Positions 4,998 to 33,346 of a DNA stretch of 64,000 bases are shown in pieces. Position 1 is the stretch's first letter, and each line of letters opens with the position of its first letter. The notes beneath the pieces are model-generated. The model ran no database searches. It saw nothing but the letters and a program-made list of their open reading frames with translations, and had not been told where the DNA came from. A program made the translations under genes and the position numbers. Source of the DNA: Pseudoalteromonas sp. H105. Its GTDB lineage: Bacteria > Pseudomonadota > Gammaproteobacteria > Enterobacterales > Alteromonadaceae. The stretch is taken from NCBI RefSeq assembly GCF_001469215.1, contig NZ_LOFH01000016.1, forward strand, positions 1 through 64,000. The letters are read 5' to 3'.

Positions 4998-6416
<1,419 letters not shown>

Positions 6417-16329: not shown

Positions 16330-16785
16330 TCACAGTGATTTTAGGTTGTTTATTTCGATCCACTGTGGCAACCAAGCTAAAGCAGTCTCTTCAGGTAGGC
16401 TTTCGTCAAGGATATTCAGTTCAAGCCGTTGTGCCGTACAGTGTGCGCCTTTACTTAAAAGTAACGCTTCTAAATTGCGGCCTGCAAGATTGTAAGTGTC
16501 ATAGCTAGTATCACCTAAGCCAATAACACTAAATTTTAATCCTTTTAAATCAAGTGCTTGTTTAATACTTTCAATAAAAGGGAGTAAGTTTTCAGGGTAA
16601 TCACCAGCGCCGTATGTTGATGTACACAAAAGCCAGATTGTGTTGTCTTGGTTAATATCATTAAAGCTAGGCTGATCATGCACTTCAGTTGGAATTCCTA
16701 AACTAATTAGCTGTTCTGCCAATTGCTCACCAACATATTCGGCAGATCCCATTTGGCTGCCAATTATAATATTTACCGAACACAT
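16330..16785 (-). CDS. mioC: MioC flavodoxin-like protein
   Basis: A 151-aa FMN-binding flavodoxin-family protein. It has the phosphate-binding segment IIGSQMGSAEYVGEQLAEQL at the N terminus, LLCTSTYGAGDYPENLLPF, and FSVIGLGDTSYDTYNLAGR. MioC is linked to biotin synthase electron transfer in E. coli. It is transcribed toward oriC, as in E. coli. I chose the ATG at 16785; a GTG five codons upstream (16800) is possible and neither has a strong ribosome-binding site. Confidence 0.93.
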   Translation of the reverse strand: MCSVNIIIGSQMGSAEYVGEQLAEQLISLGIPTEVHDQPSFNDINQDNTIWLLCTSTYGAGDYPENLLPFIESIKQALDLKGLKFSVIGLGDTSYDTYNLAGRNLEALLLSKGAHCTAQRLELNILDESLPEETALAWLPQWIEINNLKSL

Positions 16786-17648
16786 AAATTTACTGATCAC
16801 TCACCTACTTAATTTGCAGCTATGATAGCTAACTTTATTGCTCAGTAAAGAGAATACTTTAACTTTGTATAACTTTTTGTGAGTGAAAACTATTCATTCT
16901 GCTTAGTTTTATCTTAATTTATTGAAATTTATGAACAAAATAAAATATTCCTAAATGTAATCATCTGATAAAGCTGTGTGTAATTAGTGTGGAACCCTTG
17001 GGTTTTTACGAGTTGAACAATATTATAAATGACTAAGTTATTGATATTTTATAAGTAATGATGTGTTTATTTATATTGATAAATCAATAAGCACTATGTG
17101 GATAGATCTGCTGTGAATAACGATCATTTACAATAGTAAAAAAAATTGATGACATTGAATATTTTTCGATTACAGCCAAATTTACAGCTATTTTTCTAAA
17201 AAACGTGAAATTAAGCTAAAAATAATAAGGATCCTTGCTTCTTTTTTATAAGAAATAGGGAGGTTTATTAGAAGATCGTCGATTTGTGGATAAGTTTTTT
17301 TGTTTTATTAAGTGATCCTTCGCACTGGTTAACGCATTTTTCACTTTAGGATCGATCAACACAGCTTATTCCTGAGGGTTAAATCAGTTTTAATATCGCT
17401 TAATTTGAAGCTTAAATATTATAATAAAGGCTAGAATTTGGTTTTATATTAACTTAAATACACGTAAATTTACGTTAATCAACTTGGTATCAGACGGCTT
17501 TTTGAACATTCGAGTGAAGAAATACAGCTTTAATTGGGGGAGAGAGTCTCGTTTTTTAAAGTCATCCACGAGTTGTACGATTCACATTTTGATTTTTGAA
17601 AAGGAATTCTGAGGGTTTTATGTAAGAAGTTTTAAACTAAAAAAGGTC
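16786..17648. promoter_or_regulatory. Gene-free region upstream of mioC with DnaA boxes
   Basis: About 860 bp of AT-rich DNA without a convincing ORF. It carries minus-strand DnaA-box matches at 17097-17105 (complement CTATCCACA), 17112-17120 (TTATTCACA) and 17285-17293 (TTATCCACA), plus scattered GATC sites. The E. coli mioC promoter also carries a DnaA box. This could be mioC control or an extension of the origin. Confidence 0.6.
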
Positions 17649-17690: not shown

Positions 17691-17707
17691 GTTATTTACC
17701 GATACAA
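17691..17707 (-). repeat. Distal attachment-site core (att, oriC side)
   Basis: On the minus strand it reads TTGTATCGGTAAATAAC, differing by one base from the copy at 27290-27306. Read in the mnmE frame it also encodes Cys-Ile-Gly-Lys-stop (ATC for ATT is synonymous), but no mnmE sequence precedes it. It is therefore the displaced half of the crossover. Confidence 0.85.
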
Positions 17708-17748
17708 TAAGTGAAAAAACCAATAAAAACAGTAGGTTTATATTTTTT

Positions 17749-17810
17749 AGGTGGGTCTGTGGTGGCCCACTTTCGCATTAGAAAATATCGTGCAAGTAAA
17801 CTAAAGGAAA
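17749..17810. repeat. Integrase arm-type repeats, left end
   Basis: This stretch contains AGGTGGGTC (17749-17757), GTGGCCCAC (17762-17770) and GTAAACTAAAGGAAA (17796-17810). All three recur near the right end of the island (27131-27286), the last one as a perfect 15-bp inverted copy. Shared end motifs outside the core are what arm-type integrase or excisionase sites look like. Confidence 0.6.
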
Positions 17811-17833
17811 GTAAGCCCGATCACCAAGTTTAA

Positions 17834-18166
17834 TCATCGATAGTTTATAGATGCTTTTCTGTTAAGAGCTTTTGCTGAATGTTTGATGAAATCACTCAGA
17901 TCATCAGCACTTTCAACCTTATTACTAAACAGCCAGTCATCTAGTTCTAATCGATTAAAGATGATTCTTCTGCCATTAGGCTTTGAATGAGGGATGATCC
18001 CTGCGTGAGTGAGTTTATAAATATAGCTTTTAGCTAACCCCGTATAGATCACGCATTCATCTACGGTTAGATTGGATACAGTACTTAGATAGCTTTTTAT
18101 CTGTACTTTTTCTAGTAAAGTCATCTTTTCAACATTGCTTGGTCTGTCATTATTGCTCACGTTCAT
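17834..18166 (-). CDS. Helix-turn-helix DNA-binding protein, excisionase/AlpA-like
   Basis: A 110-aa protein. Residues ~35-80 form an HTH_17-type winged helix (LTVDECVIYTGLAKSYIYKL followed by IPHSKPNGRRIIFNRLELDDWL), the pattern of excisionases and AlpA-like activators. It is the gene closest to the distal att site, a usual place for a recombination directionality factor. A cluster of TTTCCCA-type repeats (18186-18211, minus strand) lies between it and the DUF927 gene and could be its operator. Whether it is an excisionase or a transcription regulator cannot be decided from sequence. Confidence 0.75.
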   Translation of the reverse strand: MNVSNNDRPSNVEKMTLLEKVQIKSYLSTVSNLTVDECVIYTGLAKSYIYKLTHAGIIPHSKPNGRRIIFNRLELDDWLFSNKVESADDLSDFIKHSAKALNRKASINYR

Positions 18167-18185
18167 GGTCTACTCTCTAAAATCT

Positions 18186-18211
18186 TTGGGAAAACGGGAA
18201 TATTGGGAAAA
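18186..18211 (-). promoter_or_regulatory. TTTCCCA-type repeat cluster upstream of the HTH gene
   Basis: On the minus strand two TTTCCCA copies flank a degenerate ATTCCCG at about 9-bp spacing. Two more TTTCCCA copies overlap the 3' end of the DUF927 gene region (18235-18254). The same motif recurs at 19986-20001 and 25945-25968. Confidence 0.5.
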
Positions 18212-18229
18212 TCAAATTAATTCATCACG

Positions 18230-19921
18230 TTAAGTTGGGAAATAAACTTGGGAAAGTGTCTCATCTAAAGCTAAATCAGCCACAATTTGTTGTGGTAGCA
18301 CCTTAAAGTAGCGACCACCAGGTGGCCCACCTGCGATTACTTTCTTGAATGTTCCTCGACCTTCACGACTTTCCAACCAATGATTTTTACACATTAGTTT
18401 AATCGTATGAGAAATATCAGTTCTATAACTAACCTTTAAGCCTTCCATAAATGCATCACGAGTTACGAACCAAGCAAGCTGACCATCTTTTTCTATTGCG
18501 TAGCCGAAGTTATCACCCAAAAACTTACCTTCAGGTAATAATTTCCGTCGCCAAAGTTTTAATGCAGCTGGTAATTGTTTTATCAACTTGTCATCTTCTG
18601 AGTCACTAGAAGAGCCACGTATTTCGAGCCAAGCATCAAATGCTTCTTTTGCACTTTTTTCAGCAAGGCCTTTAGGCCAAGGCATAAGCCCAGCTGAAGC
18701 TGCTAACTCACCACTCACGCCATGTAACGCAAATCTTTTTGCTGCTTCAATAACCTGATTGCCATTATTTTCTTTTGTTATTTCCCAATGGGTTAACATC
18801 GCTTTGATATTGCGATTTAAAAGAGTAGGGAGATCATCAATAGTGCTTAAGTACTCAACCCATTGTGGCATGACCGTGCCGTGATTTTCGTTAACGGCTT
18901 TCCAAATAGATTCAGAGAAGTCATTCATGTTGTTATGACCATAAAGATCGTCATAAGCACCATGTTGCCTTTGGGCTGGTACTTCTAAGAAACGGATTTC
19001 TTGACCTGCTTTTACGCCTTTATGTATTGATGAAAGTTTTTCTTCAAGTCCCATTTCACCGGTACTTAAAAAGATAAGTCGCCACTTTTTTCGCTGGCTT
19101 TGGGAGCCATCTTTATTACTGCGTGATTTTGACATTCCATTAGCTATTGTATAAATGGACTGATCGACGACCTCAGGGTCTACCTGATGCAGTTCATCTA
19201 AGCAAAGCAGTAAGTTATTGTGTTCTACCGCTATTGCTTCTAACCCATTAGCGGTGCTTCTCCATGCATAATAGAAGTCAGTACCTGAGTACAAGCTTGC
19301 AGCCATGATTAAGATCGTTGTTTTAGATACTTTGGACTTACCAAACAGGTGAACACCACAACTGGGCCAATTTAACCAATGAAGCAGGGGGGCACACAAG
19401 CCTGTGCAAACAGTAAATGCAAGTAATGGGTTATTAATACAAAGAGTACCAACCTCTTTCTGCCAACTAGATAAGGTACCTGCGGAACTTAAAAAATCAG
19501 CTTCTTTTGTGCCTGAGTAAATAACTTGCTCTGCTCCATTACTTACGCACCAACTGGGTGTAACAAAGCTATTATTTAGCCAGCCTGTTTGAGTCGCGCT
19601 TTTATATCGTTTTTCTGGCCTTGCTTGAATCAGGTAAGATGTTATTGGGTCCCATATACCTTTACGACTTGAAAGTGCAAGGCCTGTATCTACAAGCAAT
19701 TCTTTTAACACTTTACCTTGATCATTAATAATGTGGCGTCGTGGTATTAGCTTGCGTATGCAAATACCGTCTAAGTTTTTCCACTCAACAAGCAAGCCGT
19801 AGTCTCGAGTACTATTACCTCCTCTTGAAATGCCAAGCACTTGAATTGGGCCACACAAGAACCTTGGTTCTGAATCGGCTGTTGGGGTGTAAAATAAACC
19901 TGTTTCTCTAAGCTCAAACAT
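18230..19921 (-). CDS. DUF927-family ATPase, putative mobile-element helicase/primase component
   Basis: A 563-aa protein. Residues ~90-330 match the DUF927 P-loop ATPase layout: Walker A-like HLFGKSKVSKTT (192-202), the family WRSTANGLEAIA segment (220-231) and Walker B LLLCLDE (237-243). The usual second glycine of Walker A (GxxxxGK) is Ser199 here. DUF927 proteins are common on prophages and islands, where they are thought to act in replication. The C-terminal third looks like a winged-helix primase/helicase tail ending GGPPGGRYFKV. The ATG follows AAAGGAGC. The motif pair TGGGATG/CTGGGAAA lies 65 bp upstream of the start. Confidence 0.8.
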   Translation of the reverse strand: MFELRETGLFYTPTADSEPRFLCGPIQVLGISRGGNSTRDYGLLVEWKNLDGICIRKLIPRRHIINDQGKVLKELLVDTGLALSSRKGIWDPITSYLIQARPEKRYKSATQTGWLNNSFVTPSWCVSNGAEQVIYSGTKEADFLSSAGTLSSWQKEVGTLCINNPLLAFTVCTGLCAPLLHWLNWPSCGVHLFGKSKVSKTTILIMAASLYSGTDFYYAWRSTANGLEAIAVEHNNLLLCLDELHQVDPEVVDQSIYTIANGMSKSRSNKDGSQSQRKKWRLIFLSTGEMGLEEKLSSIHKGVKAGQEIRFLEVPAQRQHGAYDDLYGHNNMNDFSESIWKAVNENHGTVMPQWVEYLSTIDDLPTLLNRNIKAMLTHWEITKENNGNQVIEAAKRFALHGVSGELAASAGLMPWPKGLAEKSAKEAFDAWLEIRGSSSDSEDDKLIKQLPAALKLWRRKLLPEGKFLGDNFGYAIEKDGQLAWFVTRDAFMEGLKVSYRTDISHTIKLMCKNHWLESREGRGTFKKVIAGGPPGGRYFKVLPQQIVADLALDETLSQVYFPT

Positions 19922-19985
19922 AATAAAGCTCCTTTACTTTGATTTCTTTTAGTTTCGTTTGGAGTTATTTGAGCAGGAAATTTCA

Positions 19986-20001
19986 TGGGATGCTGGGAAA
20001 A
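19986..20001 (-). promoter_or_regulatory. TTTCCCA-type motif upstream of the DUF927 gene
   Basis: On the minus strand TTTCCCAG is followed by CATCCCA. It is the same motif as at 18186-18211 and 25945-25968, and is a possible shared operator. Confidence 0.35.
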
Positions 20002-20114
20002 ACTAGGGGGAATTTCAGTGGGTTTTTCAGCCCTTTAAAAATGCGGTGTTGATATTATGGGTACTCCTTTTTTACATAAAATTGGCGTAAAAATGACGTT
20101 TTTGAACGTAAAAA

Positions 20115-20130
20115 ATTAGGCATGCCTAAT
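20115..20130. repeat. Palindromic cassette-boundary repeat, copy 1
   Basis: Perfect 16-bp palindrome ATTAGGCATGCCTAAT flanked by A and T runs. It lies 24 bp after the stop of the 33-aa gene. Identical to copies 2-4. Confidence 0.9.
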
Positions 20131-20153
20131 TTTTTCGCTAGAAATATTGGATA

Positions 20154-20255
20154 TCAGTCGAATTTATTGAGGTTGTCGCGATTAAAATGAAATAGCAAAG
20201 CAAAAAATATCACCAACGTTGGAACCATGGCGTATCCTGTAAGTAAAGGAGCCAT
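20154..20255 (-). CDS. 33-aa single-pass membrane miniprotein
   Basis: A short frame reading M-A-P-L-L-T-G-Y-A-M-V-P, then a hydrophobic stretch (TLVIFFALLFHF), then the polar tail NRDNLNKFD. Its ATG lies two bases after the stop of the 39-aa gene and is preceded by AGAGGGG, so it is translationally linked. One membrane helix is predicted. Function unknown. It is the last of a three-gene set flanked by two copies of the palindromic repeat. Confidence 0.6.
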   Translation of the reverse strand: MAPLLTGYAMVPTLVIFFALLFHFNRDNLNKFD

Positions 20256-20257
20256 TG

Positions 20258-20377
20258 CTATATTTTCCCCTCTTTAATTGCTTCAAATAAATTATGCTTC
20301 AGTATGTTGTAGTGCCGAGTAGAGCGAATAGCCAGCACCATTAACACCCACATTTGAAACCATTCATAATCAGTCAT
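20258..20377 (-). CDS. 39-aa membrane-associated miniprotein
   Basis: The frame starts MTDYEWFQMWVLMVLAIRST: an amphipathic/hydrophobic N-terminal helix, then a basic stretch and a charged tail ending EAIKEGKI. It lies 9 bp after the 119-aa gene and 2 bp before the 33-aa gene. This layout and the ribosome-binding sites support real translation. Function unknown. An alternative is a bicistronic small toxin or holin-like pair, which I cannot support further. Confidence 0.6.
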   Translation of the reverse strand: MTDYEWFQMWVLMVLAIRSTRHYNILKHNLFEAIKEGKI

Positions 20378-20386
20378 AAGTACACC

Positions 20387-20746
20387 TTAATGTCTCGTAT
20401 TACCTAAGTAGATATTACCTTCCCAATTACAAAGCTCTAAAATCCAGTTACTAATTTTCAAACGTTTAGTTGGGTTAATGCCTGTGAAAGGAAAGAAAAT
20501 TTGAGCGCTACGATTTTTGAACGTTGAAAAGGGTTCCAATCGAATATCCCAAATATCGTCATGTTCATTCATAACATCAAATGCAAACGCTTTTTGTGTG
20601 GTTAAAGCAATGAACATCTCTTTTTCCGTTTCATTGCGAAGATTAAGCTCTAAACCTAATGGTTCACACTCGCCCTCAATACCAGCTAAGCGAATCTTCA
20701 GCTCATCGTATACAGGCTTAAATGGCCAAAGCTCTTTATTTATCAT
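20387..20746 (-). CDS. Hypothetical 119-aa cytosolic protein
   Basis: No family recognised. The protein has a conserved-looking N terminus MINKELWPFKPVYDELKIRL, no signal or membrane segment, and several Trp and Phe residues. I chose the ATG at 20746, which follows AAAGGAGAA; an in-frame TTG at 20761 is less likely. First gene of a three-gene unit (119, 39 and 33 aa) enclosed by repeat copies 1 and 2. Confidence 0.65.
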   Translation of the reverse strand: MINKELWPFKPVYDELKIRLAGIEGECEPLGLELNLRNETEKEMFIALTTQKAFAFDVMNEHDDIWDIRLEPFSTFKNRSAQIFFPFTGINPTKRLKISNWILELCNWEGNIYLGNTRH

Positions 20747-20763
20747 TATTTCTCCTTTCAAAA

Positions 20764-20779
20764 ATTAGGCATGCCTAAT
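20764..20779. repeat. Palindromic cassette-boundary repeat, copy 2
   Basis: ATTAGGCATGCCTAAT, 16 of 16 identical. It abuts the stop codon of the 71-aa gene (stop at 20780-20782) and ends about 18 bp upstream of the 119-aa gene start. Confidence 0.9.
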
Positions 20780-20995
20780 TTATAGATGAGTATCGTAGAG
20801 CTCACCACGAGCCTGAGCATCCTCAGCCTCTTCACGAGTCATATGCTCTCCATCAGCGATAATATTTCCCATACCATCATCAAGTTTATCTAGTTGTTCG
20901 CTTTCATTTTTGGCTGTTTCGCTGCAACTAAAAAATGCACTTGCTACGAACAAAGCTACAACAACCAATATTCCCAAAAAGCCTTCGAATCCCAT
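20780..20995 (-). CDS. 71-aa small membrane or lipoprotein-like protein
   Basis: The N-terminal hydrophobic segment GFLGILVVVALFVASAFFSC (about residues 5-24) is followed by an acidic tail rich in Asp and Glu. The cysteine after AFFS could be a weak lipobox or simply follow a membrane anchor. The ATG at 20995 follows GGAGGT; an upstream TTG was rejected. The gene is exactly enclosed by repeat copies 2 and 3. No family recognised. Confidence 0.65.
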   Translation of the reverse strand: MGFEGFLGILVVVALFVASAFFSCSETAKNESEQLDKLDDGMGNIIADGEHMTREEAEDAQARGELYDTHL

Positions 20996-21011
20996 TTTTA
21001 CCTCCAAATAA

Positions 21012-21027
21012 ATTAGGCATGCCTAAT
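21012..21027. repeat. Palindromic cassette-boundary repeat, copy 3
   Basis: ATTAGGCATGCCTAAT, just upstream of the ribosome-binding site of the 71-aa gene. This copy is 5' to genes on both sides, so it is not simply a terminator. The following 250 bp (21028-21283) hold no gene I can support and are AT-rich. Confidence 0.9.
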
Positions 21028-21283
21028 CCGATCGATTCATTGTCTTACTTTTAGTTAAGCTAATAAGTTCTTTTAAATCAATATGGAGGATGTCTTACAC
21101 GTTAAAATTTGAAGCATTAAAAATAATAATTTTCATGTGGTTATAGTAAATTATTCAAAATATATACTTTTACTTTTCTCAAAAAATAAGAATAAATAAC
21201 TAGCTTTTTGCTCAATTATTGCCATCCTATTAATGCTTAACTTATAAGCGTTAATTTTTAAATCAATCTAATGGAGTAGAATT

Positions 21284-21433
21284 ATGGCTGTTAAACATGT
21301 GCCAACTGGAATTGTTCACAAAGGAAGTAAAGGTGGATCTACAGGGTGTGGTTTTGATACTAAAAAGGAAGCCACCCACTGGGTAGAATCCCACTCTAAA
21401 ATCAACTGCGATAAAAACGGATGTAAAAACTGA
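21284..21433 (+). CDS. 49-aa cysteine-containing small protein
   Basis: A plus-strand frame starting MAVKHVPTGIVHKGSKGGST and ending INCDKNGCKN, with GGAG seven bases before the ATG. It is polar and basic with three cysteines (STGCGF, INCD, NGCK), possibly a small metal-binding fold. It is the only plus-strand gene in the island. It lies between repeat copies 3 and 4 and converges with the recombinase gene. No family recognised. Confidence 0.6.
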   Translation: MAVKHVPTGIVHKGSKGGSTGCGFDTKKEATHWVESHSKINCDKNGCKN

Positions 21434-21485
21434 GGATTAGTAGAGCAATAAACTAGGGCGATGTTAGTGTATTCGCCCATTCAAA

Positions 21486-21501
21486 ATTAGGCATGCCTAA
21501 T
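21486..21501. repeat. Palindromic cassette-boundary repeat, copy 4
   Basis: ATTAGGCATGCCTAAT ends one base before the stop triplet of the second recombinase (21503-21505) and lies 52 bp after the 49-aa gene. Confidence 0.9.
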
Positions 21502-21502
21502 T

Positions 21503-22369
21503 TTAACTGCCCAAGTAAGCATAGGTTATTTTCAAACGTTCATGACCTAACTCTTGGCTAATTTGCTCACGAACTTTGGTATCGTGCTCATAATCAGTGG
21601 GCGACAACTCTCTTCTATGCGGGCCACCATCGGCAGGGCATTTCCAACCCGTAAGCTCTAAATAGCGCTCTCGAGCGTAATGATGACGCAGTCCGTGGTT
21701 TTTATTTAATCCAACTCGAATTGTTTCGCGGTCGTACTGTTCCATTTGTGACTTATAGTTTTTGTCAGGTTCGATAAGTGCGCCTTTAGTAACAGCTGCA
21801 ATATCACGAATAAGCTGTCGTTGAGATTCTTTTAAGATCGGAATTTTGCGGTATTTGCCACCCTTAGCCCATGAGCCTTTTATTTGCAGAGTGTTAGCGT
21901 CTATCAAAGCATAAGATAAGCTGAATTTCATACACTCCTCTTTTCTAAGCCCAAATTCTTGCTGCAAACGCAGGGAAAGCTTGATCAAGTCACTTTTGAT
22001 CTTGGCATGCTTATCCATGTCTAACGTTTTTGACTTGCCAATGGGGTTGTTGCGAACTCTGGGAATGCCGTAATCATCATTGCTGCGTGAACAGATATTA
22101 GGTTTACCTATTTTCTCAGCAATCCAACGCAAGGCCGCCATTCTGTTTTTAATCGTTTTTGGTGCTAAACCTTCATCTTGCCAACGCGTTACAAGGTGAT
22201 TGATATGTTTGGTTTTAAGACCTGATGGATCTCTTAATCTATAACCATGGCTTAGTAGCTGTGCTGCTGCAAGGTTTAAAACGTTGCTCCGGGTAGCTCT
22301 AGTACTAAAGCTGCTTTCGCGGTGTGTGTCGTTCACCATTTGGTGAAGACGATATCCTAATTGGCTCAT
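21503..22369 (-). CDS. Second tyrosine recombinase (Integrase_1-like, phage_int_SAM_2 N-terminal)
   Basis: A 288-aa protein unlike the main integrase. The N-terminal core-binding domain (to ~residue 105) includes HLVTRWQDEGLAPKTIKNRM. The catalytic domain has the Arg box FGLRKEE (Arg142), beta-hairpin Lys (KGGKYRKIPI, ~172-175), box II HGLRHHYAR (His225, Arg228), LGHERLK (His276) and the likely nucleophile Tyr285 in ITYAYLGS, at the usual +9 from the histidine. All catalytic residues are present. It ends three residues after the Tyr. The ATG follows GAGGAAC. Its 3' end abuts repeat copy 4. It may act on the palindromic repeats, or be a remnant of another element. Confidence 0.8.
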   Translation of the reverse strand: MSQLGYRLHQMVNDTHRESSFSTRATRSNVLNLAAAQLLSHGYRLRDPSGLKTKHINHLVTRWQDEGLAPKTIKNRMAALRWIAEKIGKPNICSRSNDDYGIPRVRNNPIGKSKTLDMDKHAKIKSDLIKLSLRLQQEFGLRKEECMKFSLSYALIDANTLQIKGSWAKGGKYRKIPILKESQRQLIRDIAAVTKGALIEPDKNYKSQMEQYDRETIRVGLNKNHGLRHHYARERYLELTGWKCPADGGPHRRELSPTDYEHDTKVREQISQELGHERLKITYAYLGS

Positions 22370-22784
22370 TTCATGTTCCTCATAAATTTAAAAAGTAATT
22401 TTGAAAGTATTGAGAAAAACACGAAACCGAAGACCAGGGGGCGAAACGCCAAAATAGGTAAGTTTTAAAGCCATATGAACGGTGCGTAACCGAGCATATT
22501 GTCGTAAGACATAAAGGCTAACTGGCCTAAAGCAACAAAGCTGAGCCGTGTGATTTCTGTTGAAATACAGCGCGAACTACTGTGGTTTATATTTGTGTTG
22601 TTTATAGTGGGGTGGTCGTGTGACCCATAATGCTGCGAGTGCAGCTCCTCAGGAACGTGTTGCGGGCAGTGAATACGCCCTTTTTCTTTATGCTCATTTC
22701 GAGCTAGTTCATAATTAAAATTATCACAGTGATCAGAGATTGCAACACCTTTTTGACGCGTTCAAATCTCCATCCCTCTTCTGG
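22370..22784. other. Gene-free region upstream of the second recombinase
   Basis: 415 bp with base composition richer in G and C than its flanks, and no convincing ORF on either strand. A short hairpin (GGGC at about 22665-22668 pairing with GCCC before a T run) lies inside it. It may be a long leader or a non-coding RNA. I cannot assign a function. Confidence 0.4.
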
Positions 22785-22890
22785 CCCTGCAATTTTTCAG
22801 GGTGGATTGGATGTCGAGGCATCATGAGCAGTAGCCTCGACGGGCGACTCTACGAGTCGTCCCTACCTCTTTCGAGTAGGGACGACTCGT
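22785..22890. other. Three consecutive inverted repeats, structured non-coding block
   Basis: Three hairpins in a row: CCCTG/CAGGG (22785-22789 and 22798-22802); GTCGAGGC/GCCTCGAC (22813-22820 and 22834-22841, 13-nt loop); ACGAGTCGTCCCTAC/GTAGGGACGACTCGT (22852-22866 and 22876-22890, 9-nt loop, 15 perfect pairs). They lie between the recombinase and the RelA/SpoT-like operon. Possible roles are a terminator or insulator for that operon, a small RNA, or a recombination or transfer site. A further 137 bp (22891-23027) shows nothing. Confidence 0.55.
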
Positions 22891-23027
22891 CACCAATATG
22901 TCTAAAAATACGTAAGTATTAAGCCCTAAAAGAAATTATTAAATAAAGATAATATGATTACGTTAATATTTTAGTTGGCAGTCTTTAGAGTTAGATATGA
23001 AATAGATGATAGAACTTTGTATCTAGC

Positions 23028-24017
23028 TTAACCGAAATCTTCTAGTGATACACCAATCTCTGCTGCTAGCATTTGGATTAAGCGACTGTCTAATGGCCAA
23101 TTATTTATAAGGGTTATTTTGTTTCTTTTTATTAGCCAATAAAGAAAAATTACTATGCTTTGGGAATAAAAAGGGTATTCATTTCTACCTTGCAAAATTA
23201 GTTCTACGATATGCTCATTTTTTTCAACAAAACTAGTCAGCTCACCAATAGTATTCTCGTTAATCAGAGTTTTGAATGCATCTAAGATTACGATTGAAGA
23301 TTTTTGTGCTTGAGTGCAGTTGAGACCAATTTTTGAATTATATAAATCATCTAAATGTTCTTGAAATGACAAGCTTTCCACCGTTCCACAGTTTAAAGAG
23401 TTATTTACTGTAGAAAAGAAATCATCAGTTGTTTCTATCAAAGCCATACTTTTAGCAACAGTCCGATGAACACTAGCTTGTACAAGTGTTTTCGCTTTAT
23501 AAACGGCATCATGAGTTAATTCAGCGTAAGCATGCTGTAACAATGTTCTAATCTGAATCTCGCATGGTGTGCCAGCAGATATATCAGTTCCATTATAATT
23601 GATATTATTTTTTGCTTTTACTACATAATGGACTGACTGATAAGTAAAAAGTAATGGCTCTTTATCCCTTTCACTTGAGAAATGTCGGCATTCTATAAAA
23701 TCCCAAAGACAACTTTTTTGTTTTATAACATTTGTAACTTCTTCTATATGTTCAACAAGTAGTACCACAAATCGGCAAGCAACTTTGTCCTCTATTTCAT
23801 CATAAGGATCTATATAACCTTTATCTCGATAAAAAGCTTTATCTATTAGTGAGTTTTCATCTTTTACTCTTGGATTAACTGGTTGTTTCAAAAAAGAAAA
23901 TAGATCATATCCCTTTTCCTTAAGGGTCGAATTAATCTCTGACACAACAAAATCACCCCATGTTTCATACATGGGGCGTTCTTCATTCCATTTAGATAAA
24001 AACTCTTTTTCATTCAT
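23028..24017 (-). CDS. Stand-alone RelA/SpoT-like nucleotide synthetase
   Basis: A 329-aa protein. The N-terminal ~175 residues have the RelA/SpoT synthetase pattern: Arg50 in NPRVKDENSLIDK, Asp77 and Arg82 (EDKVACRFV), YQSVH (126-130) for guanine stacking, and the catalytic-type Glu153 in CEIQIRT (152-158), then HAYAELTHDAVYK. The usual Gly of GYQS is Thr125 and the Gly of D-x-x-G-x-R is Ala80. There is no HD hydrolase domain, TGS or ACT. The C-terminal ~150 residues match nothing I recognise. Its ATG overlaps the stop of the upstream gene by 4 bp. Products could be (p)ppGpp or another pyrophosphorylated nucleotide or RNA. It is probably the signal or toxin component of the operon. Confidence 0.85.
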   Translation of the reverse strand: MNEKEFLSKWNEERPMYETWGDFVVSEINSTLKEKGYDLFSFLKQPVNPRVKDENSLIDKAFYRDKGYIDPYDEIEDKVACRFVVLLVEHIEEVTNVIKQKSCLWDFIECRHFSSERDKEPLLFTYQSVHYVVKAKNNINYNGTDISAGTPCEIQIRTLLQHAYAELTHDAVYKAKTLVQASVHRTVAKSMALIETTDDFFSTVNNSLNCGTVESLSFQEHLDDLYNSKIGLNCTQAQKSSIVILDAFKTLINENTIGELTSFVEKNEHIVELILQGRNEYPFYSQSIVIFLYWLIKRNKITLINNWPLDSRLIQMLAAEIGVSLEDFG

Positions 24018-25099
24018 TCTTGAGATACAATATTGTCTTTAACTAATATATTAGTCCAATTTACAGGATTACCGTTACTATCTTCAGAGATTGTTTCAAT
24101 TTCAACCAGTTCTTGAAAAACTTGTGATGGGGCGGAAACTTTTACATGTTTACTAAATGATAGCTTACGTGTTTTTAAGTTACTTTCAATATGTTTAATA
24201 TCTTTAGCAAAGGCGCTGGTTGGTAAGTCTTTATCTTCTAAGAAGTTAGTAAAAGAATCTCTAATACTTTCTTCAAAATGTCGGCCTGCAAATTCTACAG
24301 GGCTAATAGAATCTGAATTTTCTCGTAAATATGAATTTAATGAATTTCTTATATCGTAACGCTCTTCTTCCGTAACATCTAGTTCCTGAATGAACTCGCA
24401 GGTGGCATCATAAAATTCCTTTGTGGTTTTGGCACTGCTTTCTGGGTAACCAAACCCTAAAAAGTTTGCATAAAAATAACGGGCAGCGGCTTTACCATCG
24501 GTTTGACTTATTTGAGTATCACAAACTAAAGCATCCCATTTACTATTTAAATCACCATCAGTATCTAATTCTCCTTTTTCAAAGAAACCAGCTGTTTTAT
24601 AAAGTTTTGTAGCAGGAGTTAACAGTGCTTCTTCGATGTATTCTAATGTTATTTCGTTACTGTTTTCATTAGTAAGCTTTTGATATGCACTATAGATCTC
24701 AGCTTTCATTATACCTACGAATTTTTTTGGTGTTGCTCCGTATGTACCGCTAAAAACAACAACTATTCCGCCAGGGATATTTCTTTTCGTTTGGGCATCA
24801 GCGAGCTTGTTAGCTAAATTATATGATAACTGAACATACTCATCGCTGATTTCTGTTTCAGATAGCTGATTCACGATATAGGGCGTATCAGTTTGTTCTT
24901 GATTAATGATCGTCATTTCTACTGCTTTTGACTCTGCACCTAATGCATCAATAACACGAGATTTAAAGGTGAGCATGGCGTCAGCATCAAAGTTAATAAA
25001 ATCAAAACTTTGTTTAGGTGATATCTTGTTCCCATCAGGATCTCGCTGGTAAATTTGATGGATAATAATTTTATTAATTTGTAAATTTATAATATTCAT
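24014..25099 (-). CDS. 37-kDa nucleoid-associated protein, NdpA/YejK-like
   Basis: A 361-aa protein. The N terminus (NLQINKIIIHQIYQRDPDG) and overall length match the NdpA/YejK family (usually ~335 aa), whose E. coli member binds the nucleoid. Other segments such as SYNLANKLADAQTKRNIPGG fit but are divergent. No membrane segments. I use the ATG at 25099; a TTG at 25111 is possible. It is the middle gene of the operon, 20 bp after the SLATT-like gene and overlapping the synthetase gene. Inference: a DNA-binding sensor or regulator of the synthetase. Confidence 0.7.
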   Translation of the reverse strand: MNIINLQINKIIIHQIYQRDPDGNKISPKQSFDFINFDADAMLTFKSRVIDALGAESKAVEMTIINQEQTDTPYIVNQLSETEISDEYVQLSYNLANKLADAQTKRNIPGGIVVVFSGTYGATPKKFVGIMKAEIYSAYQKLTNENSNEITLEYIEEALLTPATKLYKTAGFFEKGELDTDGDLNSKWDALVCDTQISQTDGKAAARYFYANFLGFGYPESSAKTTKEFYDATCEFIQELDVTEEERYDIRNSLNSYLRENSDSISPVEFAGRHFEESIRDSFTNFLEDKDLPTSAFAKDIKHIESNLKTRKLSFSKHVKVSAPSQVFQELVEIETISEDSNGNPVNWTNILVKDNIVSQE

Positions 25100-25119
25100 T
25101 TTTATTTTCAACGTCCTAT

Positions 25120-25572
25120 TTATGACTTTTTATGCTCTAACTTTTGAGAAGAGAGAACAATACTCTTCCATGCATTTTGATCAATCTCCCAAATTTTTTG
25201 GTATTCTTCGAATAGATCGTCAATTTTTTGATTGTTTTTTGATTTTCGAAAGTCTAACTCATTTTTTAATTGATAAAGACTCAGAAGTGTTATTTTTTGT
25301 CTAACCCATAACTTCTTGTAATCAAATAAAACTCCCCAACCATTTATAATTGTTAATAGAGCTCCAACTATGAGTGCTAAGTTTTTCTGTAGTTGAGTAT
25401 TTTCATTAGATACATCAAAACCTAAGATTAGTGTTATGAGTGCTCCCAAAATTATTGAGAGCCCATTTATTAAACCTGTTTTAAACTTATTTTTTTTTGA
25501 TTTTTTTTTGATAATAGTAATGCTTGACTCTAGTACACTACTAAAGAAATCTTTTTTATTATTTTGTTCCAA
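25120..25572 (-). CDS. Two-TM SLATT-like membrane protein, putative effector
   Basis: A 150-aa protein. A basic N terminus is followed by two adjacent membrane helices (about residues 34-51 and 64-84) separated by a short loop. A cytosolic helical segment beginning FDYKKLWVRQKITLLSLYQL comes next, then a charged coiled coil. This is the layout of the SLATT (SMODS- and SLOG-associating 2TM) effector domains. The start is a TTG at 25572: an in-frame stop lies two codons upstream and no ATG follows near the N terminus. GGAA lies upstream at workable spacing. First gene of the operon. Confidence 0.6.
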   Translation of the reverse strand: MEQNNKKDFFSSVLESSITIIKKKSKKNKFKTGLINGLSIILGALITLILGFDVSNENTQLQKNLALIVGALLTIINGWGVLFDYKKLWVRQKITLLSLYQLKNELDFRKSKNNQKIDDLFEEYQKIWEIDQNAWKSIVLSSQKLEHKKS

Positions 25573-25720
25573 AATTTATGTTCCGATGTATCTGCAAATT
25601 AATAGAGTAAACTTCATGATCTAGACTAAAGTTACACAATAGATTAATACTATATAAAAACTATCGATAACAGAAGTTTATCTATAAATAAACCACTCCT
25701 TTCAAATCCTGTAAAGCCAT

Positions 25721-25866
25721 AAATCGGAACCCCGCAAGCGGGGCCCCCTTGCTTCGCAACCCTTCGGGCGATTTCTAGCTTGACTGGCTTTTCTCTGCGT
25801 AGTGAAGGTTATCCAAGAGGTATGCGGCGCTCTGAGTGGCAAGCACTCGACGCTTTCACACCTCTT
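25721..25866. other. Multibranched structured element between integrase and SLATT operon
   Basis: In 25721-25774 a 6-bp outer stem (AAATCG at 25721-25726, CGATTT at 25769-25774) encloses three hairpins: CCCCG/CGGGG (25730-25743), TTGC/GCAA (25749-25759) and CCC/GGG with a TTC loop (25760-25768). A second module has a 7-bp outer stem AAGAGGT/ACCTCTT (25815-25821 and 25860-25866) with inner GAGTG/CACTC (25834-25838 and 25844-25848). It is flanked by two copies of ACTGGCTTTTC (25783 and 25874). No gene is supported in 25573-25980. Candidate non-coding RNA, replication origin or transfer origin. Confidence 0.5.
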
Positions 25867-25944
25867 CGATACAACTGGCTTTTCAAATAAAAGCGGGGAA
25901 AGAGGGAAGGCAAATAAATTTATATTTATATGTTTTTATTATAT

Positions 25945-25968
25945 TTTCCCAGTTTCCCATATTTCCCA
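25945..25968 (+). repeat. Three tandem TTTCCCA repeats
   Basis: TTTCCCA occurs at 25945-25951, 25953-25959 and 25962-25968, with 8- and 9-bp periodicity, just downstream of the integrase stop codon. The same motif clusters upstream of the HTH and DUF927 genes. Confidence 0.6.
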
Positions 25969-25980
25969 ACCTAATATCCT

Positions 25981-27114
25981 TTATTGAAATAGGCTAGGTA
26001 AGGTGGTCATCGCCTCTTTTCGCTTACGATCTATGATGTCTGTATAGATTTGTGTTGTTTTTAACTCTGAATGACCAAGCAATTTTGAAACGGTATAAAT
26101 ATCGACATCATTAGTTAGCATACGTACAGCGAATGTGTGTCTCGCACAGTGAAAGGTAATGTGCTTTGTAATCCCCGCTCTGAGCATCCACTGTGTTAGG
26201 GCAACATTTGTATAGCTTGAGTATCTTAAACCTTTAAAAACACGTTCATGGGCTTCTCCTGGCGAATCTAAAAGCATAGTGGCATCAGATGGAAGGTATA
26301 AGTACTGAAGTTGCCCTGTTTTAATGTGATTAAAAGTTGCTCGTGGATCTATCATTGTGAGTTTTTCCCACGTTAGCTTTTGAATATCACTCCAGCGCAT
26401 ACCTGTGAGGCATCCGAATAAGAATGCTCGCTTCAGTACATCATACCGGCACTCTGTTTTATAAAGTGCAGTTACTTCTTCCTCTTCTAAGTAATTACGA
26501 GGGTTTTGTTCTATCTTGATGCTTTTTACTTCGTTTACAGGATTTCGGCGAATAATGCCTTCGTGAAATGCTTTGTTTAAAGCCGCTCTCACTTTATTGA
26601 AATAGCATGATGTAGTATTTGAAGAAAGTAGCTTATCTGATTTTGTTCGTGCATGTTTTATTAGGTATGTTCTGAACCCAAGTAATACATCAGCATCGAA
26701 GTCAGCAAAGGATAAAGGGTTACCCTCACAATATCTCTTTAGATGCATTAACGATGATTCCCACAATGATACGTTTGATGGGCTATCAGTGTGCTCTTTG
26801 TCATTAATTATTTGCTGCATGTAGCTATAAAAGCTTTCTTGCTGTTTTTCTGAGTCTTCAAAGTGGTGCTTGTTGTTAGCTAAATCGACAATCGCTTGCG
26901 CTCTTATCTTTTCTGAAATATCTAAGGTCTTTTTATTGTGGTCACGTTGGAACTTGTCCTTAGGGTTGGCATAAATGAACAAGTCCATTGATTGTCTTTT
27001 ACGGCGTTTAACTCGTTTGCCGTTTTCGTTTAGGTAAGAACCATAATTTCTGGTTAATAGTAGTTGTTGGCGGCCTGTGCTATCAGGTGACTTTTTCTCG
27101 ATAGTTAATTTCAT
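25981..27114 (-). CDS. int: Site-specific tyrosine integrase of the island
   Basis: A 377-aa tyrosine recombinase. It has an N-terminal arm-binding domain (residues ~1-85), a SAM-like core-binding domain (~90-190) and a catalytic domain with Arg240 (TGMRWSDIQKLTW), Lys265 (HIKTGQ), box II FHCARHTF (His322, Arg325), LLGHSELKTTQIYTDI (His348, Tyr357). The Arm and SAM_5-like style and the wording of these boxes resemble integrases typical of Bacteroidota elements. The ATG at 27114 follows AGGAAG; a longer frame to 27183 lacks a better start. It lies directly downstream of mnmE in the same direction, so readthrough is possible. It presumably recombines the 17-bp cores. Confidence 0.93.
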   Translation of the reverse strand: MKLTIEKKSPDSTGRQQLLLTRNYGSYLNENGKRVKRRKRQSMDLFIYANPKDKFQRDHNKKTLDISEKIRAQAIVDLANNKHHFEDSEKQQESFYSYMQQIINDKEHTDSPSNVSLWESSLMHLKRYCEGNPLSFADFDADVLLGFRTYLIKHARTKSDKLLSSNTTSCYFNKVRAALNKAFHEGIIRRNPVNEVKSIKIEQNPRNYLEEEEVTALYKTECRYDVLKRAFLFGCLTGMRWSDIQKLTWEKLTMIDPRATFNHIKTGQLQYLYLPSDATMLLDSPGEAHERVFKGLRYSSYTNVALTQWMLRAGITKHITFHCARHTFAVRMLTNDVDIYTVSKLLGHSELKTTQIYTDIIDRKRKEAMTTLPSLFQ

Positions 27115-27130
27115 AATAACTTCCTCTTTG

Positions 27131-27286
27131 GTGGACCAATAGTGGCCCACATCAAAGAAGTAGGTGGGCCGTTCAAGACCCATATTATGAAACTAAAGGA
27201 AACTATTGAAAGATAAAAAAGTTATTAAATGTATGAATAAATTAGGTTTTTTAACTTAAGTTGGATGTTTGTTTCCTTTAGTTTAC
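27131..27286. repeat. Integrase arm-type repeats, right end
   Basis: This stretch contains GTGGACCAA (27131-27139), GTGGCCCAC (27142-27150), GTGGGCC (27164-27170), AAACTAAAGGAAA (27190-27202) and the perfect inverse of GTAAACTAAAGGAAA (27272-27286). The counterparts at the other island end are at 17749-17810. The two AAACTAAAGGAAA copies here are inverted and could also form a hairpin downstream of mnmE. Confidence 0.6.
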
Positions 27287-27289
27287 CTT

Positions 27290-27306
27290 GTTATTTACCA
27301 ATACAA
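27290..27306 (-). repeat. Attachment-site core at the mnmE end
   Basis: On the minus strand it reads TTGTATTGGTAAATAAC, which is the last mnmE codons (TGT ATT GGT AAA TAA, Cys-Ile-Gly-Lys-stop). Its partner is at 17691-17707. Confidence 0.88.
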
Positions 27307-31954: not shown

Positions 31955-33346
31955 GTGTATCTGTCGGTTTGGCAAAGTTGTTTATATGTATTGCAAGATG
32001 AATTGCCTTCGCAGCAGTTCAGTATGTGGGTTAGACCATTACAAGCAGAAAGTACCGAAGATACCCTGACTATTTATGCGCCAAATCGGTTTGTTCTTGA
32101 TTGGGTAAGAGAAAAGTACCTTAACCGCATTAATGAATTACTCGTCGAAATTTGTAAAGACGAGGCACCAGAATTGCGTTTTGATGTAGGCAGTAAACCT
32201 ATATTAAACACGCAGATGACAGCGCCAATGGCAGATAATTCTGCAGCACCTGTTAATCAACCAACCGCAAAGCAACAACCAAAAGCTGTTAAACAAGCTG
32301 TTGAGCCTGCACCAAAGTCTGGTTATAAATCTAACATAAAAGAAAACTATACGTTTGATAGTTTTGTTGAAGGTAAATCTAACCAGTTAGCTAAAGCTGC
32401 GGCAACGCAAGTTGCTGATAATCCTGGTGCTGCTTTTAATCCTGTATTTATATATGGTGGTACCGGCTTAGGTAAAACGCACTTATTGCATGCGGTCGGC
32501 AATGGCATTATGGCAAATAAGCCAGATGCAAAAATAGTGTATATGCATTCAGAACGATTTGTTCAAGATATGGTAAAAGCGCTGCAAAATAATGCGATTG
32601 AAGAGTTTAAACGTTACTATCGTAGTGTTGATGCGCTAATGATCGATGATATTCAGTTTTTTGCCAATAAAGAACGTTCACAAGAAGAATTTTTTCATAC
32701 TTTCAATGCCTTGCTTGAAGGTAATCAGCAAATAATTTTAACTTCAGACCGCTATCCTAAAGAGATCGAAGGGGTTGAAGACCGCCTTAAATCACGTTTT
32801 GGCTGGGGTTTAACCATTGCGATTGAGCCGCCAGAGCTAGAAACGCGCGTGGCTATTTTGATGAAAAAAGCACAGCAAAGTAAAATTAATTTACCGCATG
32901 AAGTGGCTTTTTTCATTGCGAAAAAACTTCGTTCAAATGTACGTGAATTAGAAGGTGCACTGAACCGTGTTATCGCCAATGCTAATTTCACTGGGCGCCC
33001 AATTTCAATTGATTTTGTAAAAGAAGCACTGCGTGACTTACTTGCTCTGCAAGACAAGCTTGTCACTATCGATAACATTCAACGTACTGTTGCTGAATAT
33101 TATCGTATCCGTGTATCTGACTTACTATCTAAGCGCCGTAGTCGCTCTATTGCACGACCGCGTCAAGTTGCAATGGCATTGTCAAAAGAATTAACTAATC
33201 ACAGTTTACCTGAAATTGGTGACGCGTTTGGTGGCCGTGACCACACAACTGTATTGCATGCGTGCAGAAAAGTTAAATCACTGCGTGATGAAAGCCACGA
33301 AGTGAAAGAAGATTATCAAAACCTAATAAGAACATTGTCATCTTAA
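31955..33346 (+). CDS. dnaA: Chromosomal replication initiator DnaA
   Basis: An AAA+ protein that binds the oriC DnaA boxes and loads DnaB. The 463-aa protein has domain I ([20 protein letters not shown]), a linker, the AAA+ core starting [13 protein letters not shown], Walker [14 protein letters not shown], Walker [10 protein letters not shown], and C-terminal DNA-binding domain IV with [11 protein letters not shown]. The start is a GTG preceded by GGGAG. Confidence 0.98.

What the first reader, a model, noticed from the sequence alone, without database searches (positions are those of the whole stretch)
25721..25866. Compact multibranched structured element in the gene-free gap
A 6-bp closing stem encloses three hairpins (25721-25774), and a 7-bp stem with an inner hairpin follows (25815-25866). 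An 11-bp direct repeat flanks the second. This much perfect pairing in 150 bp is unlikely by chance in AT-rich DNA. It lies just upstream of the SLATT-NdpA-Rel operon. It may be a non-coding RNA, an oriT or a replication origin.
Basis: seen in the sequence. Interest (0 to 1): 0.52.

Follow-up and report, generated by a model that had tools for sequence, protein, structure and literature searches.

The report
Filamentous-phage replication hairpin on defence island
The folded DNA element next to this bacterial defence island is a relative of the hairpin that filamentous phages such as M13 use to turn their single-stranded DNA into double-stranded DNA, which suggests that the island travels between cells as a single strand.

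Summary
The structure is real, conserved, and not an RNA gene. Its core (25711-25784, "B") is homologous to the minus-strand (complementary-strand) origin stem-loop of filamentous phages. A covariance model built only from Alteromonadales copies finds f1 and fd (E 2e-8), the stem-loop that the IKe record labels "minus-strand origin" (E 3e-4), inovirus prophages, a microvirus, and plasmids that place it beyond repA. Pairing is kept by double changes (29 two-sided against 5 one-sided cells). The second hairpin (25815-25866, "A") also covaries and sits where Ff phages have their packaging hairpin.

The host element is a 9.6-kb integrative island at the mnmE 3' end (17691-27306): integrase, A-B, exchangeable defence cargo, tyrosine-recombinase-like protein, DUF927 helicase. 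The cargo boundary is exactly at the element (25690).

Best explanation: a single-strand initiation site (ssi) that primes second-strand synthesis when the island is single-stranded, templated by the minus strand. Identity is strong. Function on the island is inferred.

What is different: B has three inner hairpins instead of one, and the classical second origin hairpin C is missing (motif in 0 of 15 three-hairpin loci, 9 of 15 one-hairpin loci). Packaging in filamentous virions is possible but unproven.

The parts
25690..25884 (-). whole conserved element, hairpins A and B; the minus strand is the presumed template
   Evidence: homology in related loci starts at 25689-25691
25711..25784 (-). 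hairpin B, homologue of the filamentous-phage minus-strand-origin stem-loop; outer stem 25711-25717/25778-25784, inner stem 25721-25726/25769-25774
   Evidence: model R1: f1 E 2.1e-8, fd 2.3e-8, IKe annotated minus-strand origin 3.3e-4; covariation
25730..25743 (-). inner hairpin H1 (CCCCGC AA GCGGGG); its two loop-proximal pairs covary (GC/AT/CG)
   Evidence: helix 3
25749..25768 (-). inner hairpins H2 (TTGC-TTC-GCAA) and H3 (CCC-TTC-GGG), absent from Ff/IKe, present in the Alteromonadales type
25815..25866 (-). hairpin A (AAGAGGT/ACCTCTT with inner GAGTG/CACTC); position of the Ff packaging hairpin
   Evidence: 4 pairs with two-sided changes in 17 sequences; DNA hairpin z -4.4
25783..25793 (+). 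11-bp direct repeat, copy 1
   Evidence: end point of the hairpin-A deletion in L066 and L023
25874..25884 (+). 11-bp direct repeat, copy 2
25981..27183 (-). tyrosine integrase (PF13102 + PF00589); homology suggests the start is nearer 27108
27290..27306 (+). island end at the mnmE 3' end, direct repeat GTTATTTACC(A)ATACAA
17691..17707 (+). other island end, direct repeat GTTATTTACC(G)ATACAA
   Evidence: homology to L070 also starts at 17692
23028..25572 (-). exchangeable cargo: RelA/SpoT-domain, NA37 (NdpA-like) and SLATT proteins
   Evidence: backbone homology breaks between 22888 and 25690
22548..22888 (.). region X, structured non-coding segment at the other cargo edge, upstream of int2; candidate oriT (inferred)
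   Evidence: retained in L016, L017, L066
21503..22369 (-). int2 (PF12834/PF12835); relatives on 211 plasmid records, many small; candidate MobK/MpsA-like relaxase (inferred, not tested)
18230..19921 (-). DUF927 protein, replicative helicase/primase-like
17834..18166 (-). helix-turn-helix protein of AlpA type
   Evidence: PF12728 above and PF05930 below cut-off; phrog_66

Best explanation
It is a DNA element: a filamentous-phage-type single-strand initiation site (complementary-strand origin) carried by an integrative, probably mobilizable, defence island at mnmE. When the island's minus strand is exposed as single-stranded DNA (most likely after conjugative transfer, or during rolling-circle replication), it folds into hairpin B, which a host enzyme (RNA polymerase as in M13, recalled, or primase) uses to start an RNA primer and make the second strand, running left to right in window coordinates. 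Hairpin A beside it is kept as a second cis element, a terminator or a packaging signal. Shown: homology, structure, orientation, conservation, island anatomy. Inferred: that the island passes through ssDNA, the priming on the island, the priming enzyme, the role of A.
For: (1) Model R1, built from 12 Alteromonadales copies with no Ff phage, matches f1 (E 2.1e-8), fd (2.3e-8) and IKe (3.3e-4) exactly at the stem-loop that the IKe record labels 'minus-strand origin stem loop'. In a blind search of 108 genus genomes it hit an f1 origin in a contaminating vector. (2) All E<=0.01 genome hits lie on such islands or their remnants, IncFII-RepA elements, ssDNA-type replicons or that vector: genus 11 of 108, order 5 of 394, family 17 of 395 (overlapping samples; contexts). 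(3) A microvirus also carries B (L078, PF02305), so it is not specific to filamentous packaging. (4) The f1 hairpin has relatives in 434 of 72,556 plasmids, e.g. 2.1-kb plasmids with II/X-family Rep and IncF plasmids about 650 bp beyond repA. The Alteromonadales RepA-type loci have the same layout and orientation. (5) Orientation agrees: zot/pI and repA contexts both make the window minus strand the template. (6) 8 pairs and 29 cells with two-sided changes, 0 of 500 shuffles; sliding the partner destroys the signal. (7) In pIGRK an ssi palindrome, when deleted, gave multimers and instability (PMC6854812, passages seen).
Against: Hairpin C, which carries the M13 primer start (recalled) and is the second 'minus-strand origin' loop of IKe, is absent from the island: motif found in 0 of 15 three-hairpin loci tested against 9 of 15 one-hairpin loci. 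That int2 is a relaxase and X an oriT is inference; no test against MpsA or MobK sequences was made. No direct evidence of ssDNA or transfer. B is decaying in L066 and partly lost in L017, both remnants without integrase.
Confidence: 0.7

Rival explanations
1. The island is a natural phagemid: A is a packaging signal and B the minus-strand origin, and helper inoviruses export the excised island in filamentous virions.
For: On the template strand the order A then B is that of Ff phages. A strong hairpin stands beside B in fd and in inoviruses L025, L072, L075, L077 as well as in W, L018, L021, L024, L026, L042, L134 (z -3.3 to -11.7), but not in plasmid copies L135, L136, L137. A covaries. The own genome holds a Zot gene.
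Against: No viral-strand origin in the element. Inovirus prophages L062, L063 lack A beside B, and IKe gives only z -1.3 within 170 nt. Carriers are not enriched for Zot: 3 of 10 carriers against 22 of 98 others in the genus. The A hairpins share little sequence. The RepA-type elements also have A.
Confidence: 0.15
2. It is a dead relic of an inovirus insertion, kept only because it lies in a conserved backbone.
For: No inovirus genes nearby; degenerate copies exist (L066, L017).
Against: Compensatory changes in A and B. The ten examined island loci with an integrase match and the element inside the locus (W, L021, L022, L033, L036, L039, L043, L064, L069, L070; some are the same genome twice) keep A and B, while loci that lost the integrase show the decay.
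Confidence: 0.07
3. It is an oriT or relaxase target, like the three-stem-loop oriT of SGI1-type islands that also sit at trmE/mnmE.
For: SGI1-family oriTs have three conserved stem-loops and MpsA is tyrosine-recombinase-like (PMC6414798, PMC8409611, passages seen); int2 has that kind of domain.
Against: The element is over 3 kb from int2; SGI1 oriT is next to mpsA. Homologues occur in phages and RCR plasmids, not tied to int2. Region X beside int2 is the better candidate.
Confidence: 0.05
4. It is a non-coding RNA or leader that regulates the cargo.
For: Stable RNA fold on both strands; lies between cargo and integrase.
Against: Cargo is unrelated from island to island and faces either way, e.g. 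converging on the element in L037, L033, L036, L039. Few G-U changes (5 one-sided against 29 two-sided cells). No Rfam match. Phage and plasmid homologues are replication sites.
Confidence: 0.03

Closest known systems
M13/f1/fd/IKe minus-strand (complementary-strand) origin, hairpin B
   Same: Same outer stem (GTAAAGC...GCTTGAC), same inner stem AAATCG/CGATTT, same GGAACCC hairpin start, same strand logic
   Different: Three inner hairpins instead of one; hairpin C missing; sits on a chromosomal defence island with no inovirus genes
B-type ssi of small rolling-circle plasmids (II/X-family Rep) and of IncF RepA plasmids
   Same: Same stem-loop, and in RepA plasmids the same side of repA
   Different: Plasmids use the one-hairpin form; the C motif is in 3 of the 5 fetched (L135, L137, L139); no A in L135, L136, L137
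Frpo-type ssDNA promoters in leading regions of conjugative plasmids (PMC11541004)
   Same: Folded ssDNA thought to be read by a host polymerase early after transfer; a small conserved ORF (orfS) lies directly downstream in many copies
   Different: No sequence comparison with Frpo was made; no good -10 element was seen by eye; orfS is absent from this window
SGI1-family islands at trmE/mnmE (PMC8409611)
   Same: mnmE 3' end target, tyrosine integrase, tyrosine-recombinase-like candidate relaxase; some relatives carry IncFII_repA
   Different: No SGI1 genes recognised here (not searched one by one); replication protein is of DUF927 type; SGI1-type oriT not identified

Membership tests
Ff-type complementary-strand (minus-strand) origin | Homologous stem-loop B on the template strand | tested here: met
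Ff-type complementary-strand (minus-strand) origin | Second stem-loop C carrying the primer start | tested here: not met
   no C motif within 110 nt 3' of B in the window; so it is filed as homologous to the B half and as working like this origin, not as a full member
Ff-type complementary-strand (minus-strand) origin | Primes second-strand synthesis on SSB-coated ssDNA by a host polymerase | not testable with these tools
   needs a bench assay
Ff packaging signal (hairpin A) | Long imperfect hairpin 5' of B on the packaged strand | tested here: met
Ff packaging signal (hairpin A) | Recognised by tip proteins pVII/pIX, drives packaging | not testable with these tools
   function described in PMC10175506 (passages)
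G4-type primase G site / R100 G site | Sequence or structure match to the R100 site downstream of repA | tested here: not met
   R1 found nothing at E<=10 in R100 80000-94281; the exact G-site position is recalled only
oriT of SGI1/MpsA type | Located beside the mpsA-like gene | tested here: not met
   element 25690-25884, int2 21503-22369; region X lies beside int2
Rfam RNA family | Match above gathering score | tested here: not met
   only 16S rRNA and AsdA in the window

The most novel reading that the evidence does not exclude
Defence islands of Alteromonadales are natural phagemids: they carry the filamentous-phage packaging hairpin and minus-strand origin in cis, so that helper inoviruses export them as circular single strands, delivering restriction, Gabija, Lamassu or SLATT cargo to new hosts. 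The three-hairpin head is a new type of complementary-strand origin that needs no hairpin C.
Probability: 0.15. Interest if true: 0.82.

Novelty: new variant of a known kind. Interest (0 to 1): 0.52.

Why it matters
How defence islands without transfer genes move is an open question. Finding a single-strand replication site, kept by compensatory change at the cargo boundary of such islands across several genera, predicts that they pass through a single-stranded stage, and says which strand. It gives a small cis-acting sequence to delete. The three-hairpin, C-less form also offers a natural test of what a complementary-strand origin minimally needs.

Tried and rejected
G4/DnaG-type G site: my first hypothesis, from the IncFII-RepA contexts. 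R100 gave no match and no conserved primase start triplet was seen by eye. The f1 hit replaced it.

attC or other cassette recombination site: considered because the cargo changes exactly at 25690. No second copy at the other cargo edge; rejected.

5' leader of the cargo operon: rejected by cargo orientation.

Helper co-occurrence: Zot was found in 25 of 108 genus genomes. Excluding G713, whose hit is a vector, 3 of 10 carriers had Zot (G000, G655, G657) against 22 of 98 others; no association.

Two Vibrio inoviruses (L031, L032) had no R1 match at E<=10; If1 (L082, partial) none at E<=10.

A viral-contig scan for the three-hairpin form found 0. The looser pattern found 9, of which 2 (L071, L076) are tailed-phage coding sequence (by eye) scoring 14.4 bits.

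orfS: no PHROG match and none above a Pfam cut-off. AlphaFold model pLDDT 83; no Foldseek match at E<=0.001 in PDB or viral structures.

No paper found in the held library that reports inovirus origin hairpins on integrative defence islands.

Full report
WHAT IS THERE. The window is a chromosomal-origin region: atp operon, parAB, mnmG on the left and mnmE, yidC, dnaA on the right; mnmE and dnaA were identified by models, the rest named from gene order and recall. Between a flavodoxin-like ORF (16330-16800) and mnmE lies an integrative island of 9.6 kb. Its ends are direct repeats GTTATTTACC[A/G]ATACAA at 17691-17707 and 27290-27306, the latter at the 3' end of mnmE, and homology to a related island (L070) begins at 17692. 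Inside: tyrosine integrase (25981-27183), the element, cargo (SLATT, NA37/NdpA-like, RelA/SpoT-domain), region X, int2 (PF12834/PF12835), small ORFs, a DUF927 helicase/primase-like protein, and an AlpA-type regulator.

THE OBSERVATION. The fold exceeds shuffled sequence (z -3.4 and -2.9 on the two strands), though by DNA energy it ranks only 7th of 639 windows. The 6-bp stem continues outward after a 3+3 internal loop as GTAAAGC/GCTTGAC.

HOMOLOGUES. blastn in 295 family genomes gave 14 with a match, the own genome included. A covariance model (R1, 12 sequences) gave 5 of 394 order genomes, 11 of 108 genus genomes and 17 of 395 family genomes at E<=0.01; the samples overlap. I looked at the context of all of them. 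Family sample: 8 mnmE/integrase-type islands or remnants, 5 islands with a small ORF (orfS) beside the element, 2 elements with an IncFII_repA gene about 390 bp upstream (G015, G125), 1 inovirus prophage (G033: Zot, Rep_trans), 1 element with a Phage_GPA replication gene (G044). Order sample: three islands and two inovirus prophages (G594, G558). Genus sample: ten islands or remnants and one vector contaminant (G713). A pattern scan of genome contigs gave 15 loci, all from Alteromonadales-type genera by their titles.

IDENTITY. The vector contaminant was the clue: R1 had found the f1 origin. Tested directly, R1 matches f1 (E 2.1e-8), fd (2.3e-8) and IKe (3.3e-4) in 7.1 kb. The IKe match, locus L083 428-483, coincides with the feature 6333-6385 that the record calls "minus-strand origin stem loop structure". 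Of 9 IMG/VR contigs found with a loose pattern, 7 score 28.9 bits or more and 2 do not. Six of the seven carry inovirus Zot/pI or pIV relatives and one (L078) is a microvirus with a PF02305 capsid protein. The f1 hairpin also has relatives in 434 of 72,556 PLSDB plasmids and in 318 of 5,426 E. coli genomes, 331 of 349 places there on plasmids. Those opened include a 2.1-kb plasmid with II/X-family replication protein, a 5-kb rep plasmid, and two IncF plasmids with the hairpin about 650 bp beyond repA; a fifth has no rep gene in the stretch shown. All five fetched plasmid copies match R1 at 26-35 bits, R100 does not.

STRUCTURE UNDER SELECTION. On 31 distinct sequences the 24-pair structure is formed in 92.3% of cells. 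Eight pairs show two-sided changes, 29 cells, reached by 0 of 500 shuffles, and sliding partners by 1-3 columns drops pairing to 25-53%. One caution: the alignment was fitted to part of this structure; the outer stem was not in the model. A first count with the outer stem placed one column off gave a weaker result (83.5%) and was corrected. Hairpin A has 4 pairs with two-sided changes in 17 sequences. Two-sided changes outnumber one-sided (G-U type) ones 29 to 5 in B and 19 to 5 in A, as expected of a DNA hairpin more than of an RNA (inference).

STRAND AND MECHANISM. In inovirus contexts the coat and zot genes run so that the viral strand is the complement of the window + strand; in RepA contexts replication running away from repA (recalled for IncFII) uses the same strand as leading-strand template. 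Both make the window minus strand the template. On it the order is A, then B, as in Ff phages. I infer that when the minus strand is single (conjugation by the int2 module, rolling-circle replication, or packaging), B is the site where a host polymerase lays the first primer. Which polymerase is unknown. In many copies orfS (about 70-80 aa, conserved) lies just downstream in the direction of that synthesis, which recalls leading-region genes behind Frpo promoters (PMC11541004, passages). orfS is lost in this window and its fold matches nothing known.

WHAT IS DIFFERENT. Ff, IKe, the inovirus and microvirus contigs and the plasmids have one inner hairpin. Next to it 9 of 15 have the hairpin-C motif, and 14 of 15 have some hairpin there with z of -2.4 or lower. 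Of 15 three-hairpin loci 0 have the C motif and 2 have a hairpin at that threshold, which was set after seeing the numbers. One three-hairpin locus, L025, is itself an inovirus prophage. So the extra hairpins appear where C is missing. That is a new sub-type, and it is why I do not file the element as a full Ff-type origin.

CARGO BOUNDARY. Backbone homology to related islands stops at 22888 and resumes at 25690. Other islands hold Gabija (GajA, GajB), an LmuA-like protein, type I and type II methyltransferases and others in the same slot; 8 of 10 cargo proteins tested hit PADLOC models at E<=1e-5. In L016, L017 and L066 the integrase is gone but the element (damaged in two) and region X remain around three different cargoes.

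RIVALS. Packaging by helper inoviruses is the boldest reading. It is favoured by A and its order; it is weakened by the missing viral-strand origin, by A being absent beside B in two inoviruses, and by no enrichment of Zot in carriers (3 of 10 against 22 of 98). Precedents exist: a plasmid as inovirus satellite (title seen only in the reference list of PMC11389934) and transduction by a jumbo phage of islands with integrase, AlpA and defence genes (PMC12595487, passages). oriT, ncRNA and relic are less likely for the reasons given in their entries.

VERDICT. Identity of B as a homologue of the filamentous-phage minus-strand-origin stem-loop: about 0.93. Function on the island as a single-strand initiation site: about 0.7. 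Packaging: about 0.15.

Noticed in passing
window 22500-22900: Region X upstream of int2 holds several hairpins, one with a long near-perfect stem at about 22800-22888, and forms the other cargo edge; candidate oriT.
   Followed up: partly
L021, L018, L042 and others, directly right of hairpin A: A small conserved ORF (orfS, 70-80 aa, 31-94% identity to the L021 copy) follows the element in many copies and has no known family or fold.
   Followed up: partly
L016, L017, L066 (G202, G267, G657): A lineage of mini-islands at mnmE that lost integrase, int2 and helicase but keeps the element, region X and different cargo; possibly non-autonomous elements.
   Followed up: partly
L067 (G713 contig C65, 3970 bp): Cloning-vector contamination (f1 origin, T7-terminator-like and His-tag-like sequence, aminoglycoside phosphotransferase by eye) in a public genome.
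   Followed up: no
window 32453-32533, minus strand: Rfam AsdA, antisense RNA of the dnaA mRNA, 71 bits, overlapping dnaA.
   Followed up: no
G000:C2:434886-435647: A Zot-family gene in the same genome suggests an inovirus prophage; the genome search with R1 reported no match there at E<=0.01.
   Followed up: partly
L024 and L026 (G015, G125): Integrated elements near a mutY-like gene (by eye) with IncFII_repA, hairpins A and B; L026 also has a NikA/MobC-like gene. Their A hairpins end in a GTGATAA motif also seen in inovirus L025.
   Followed up: partly
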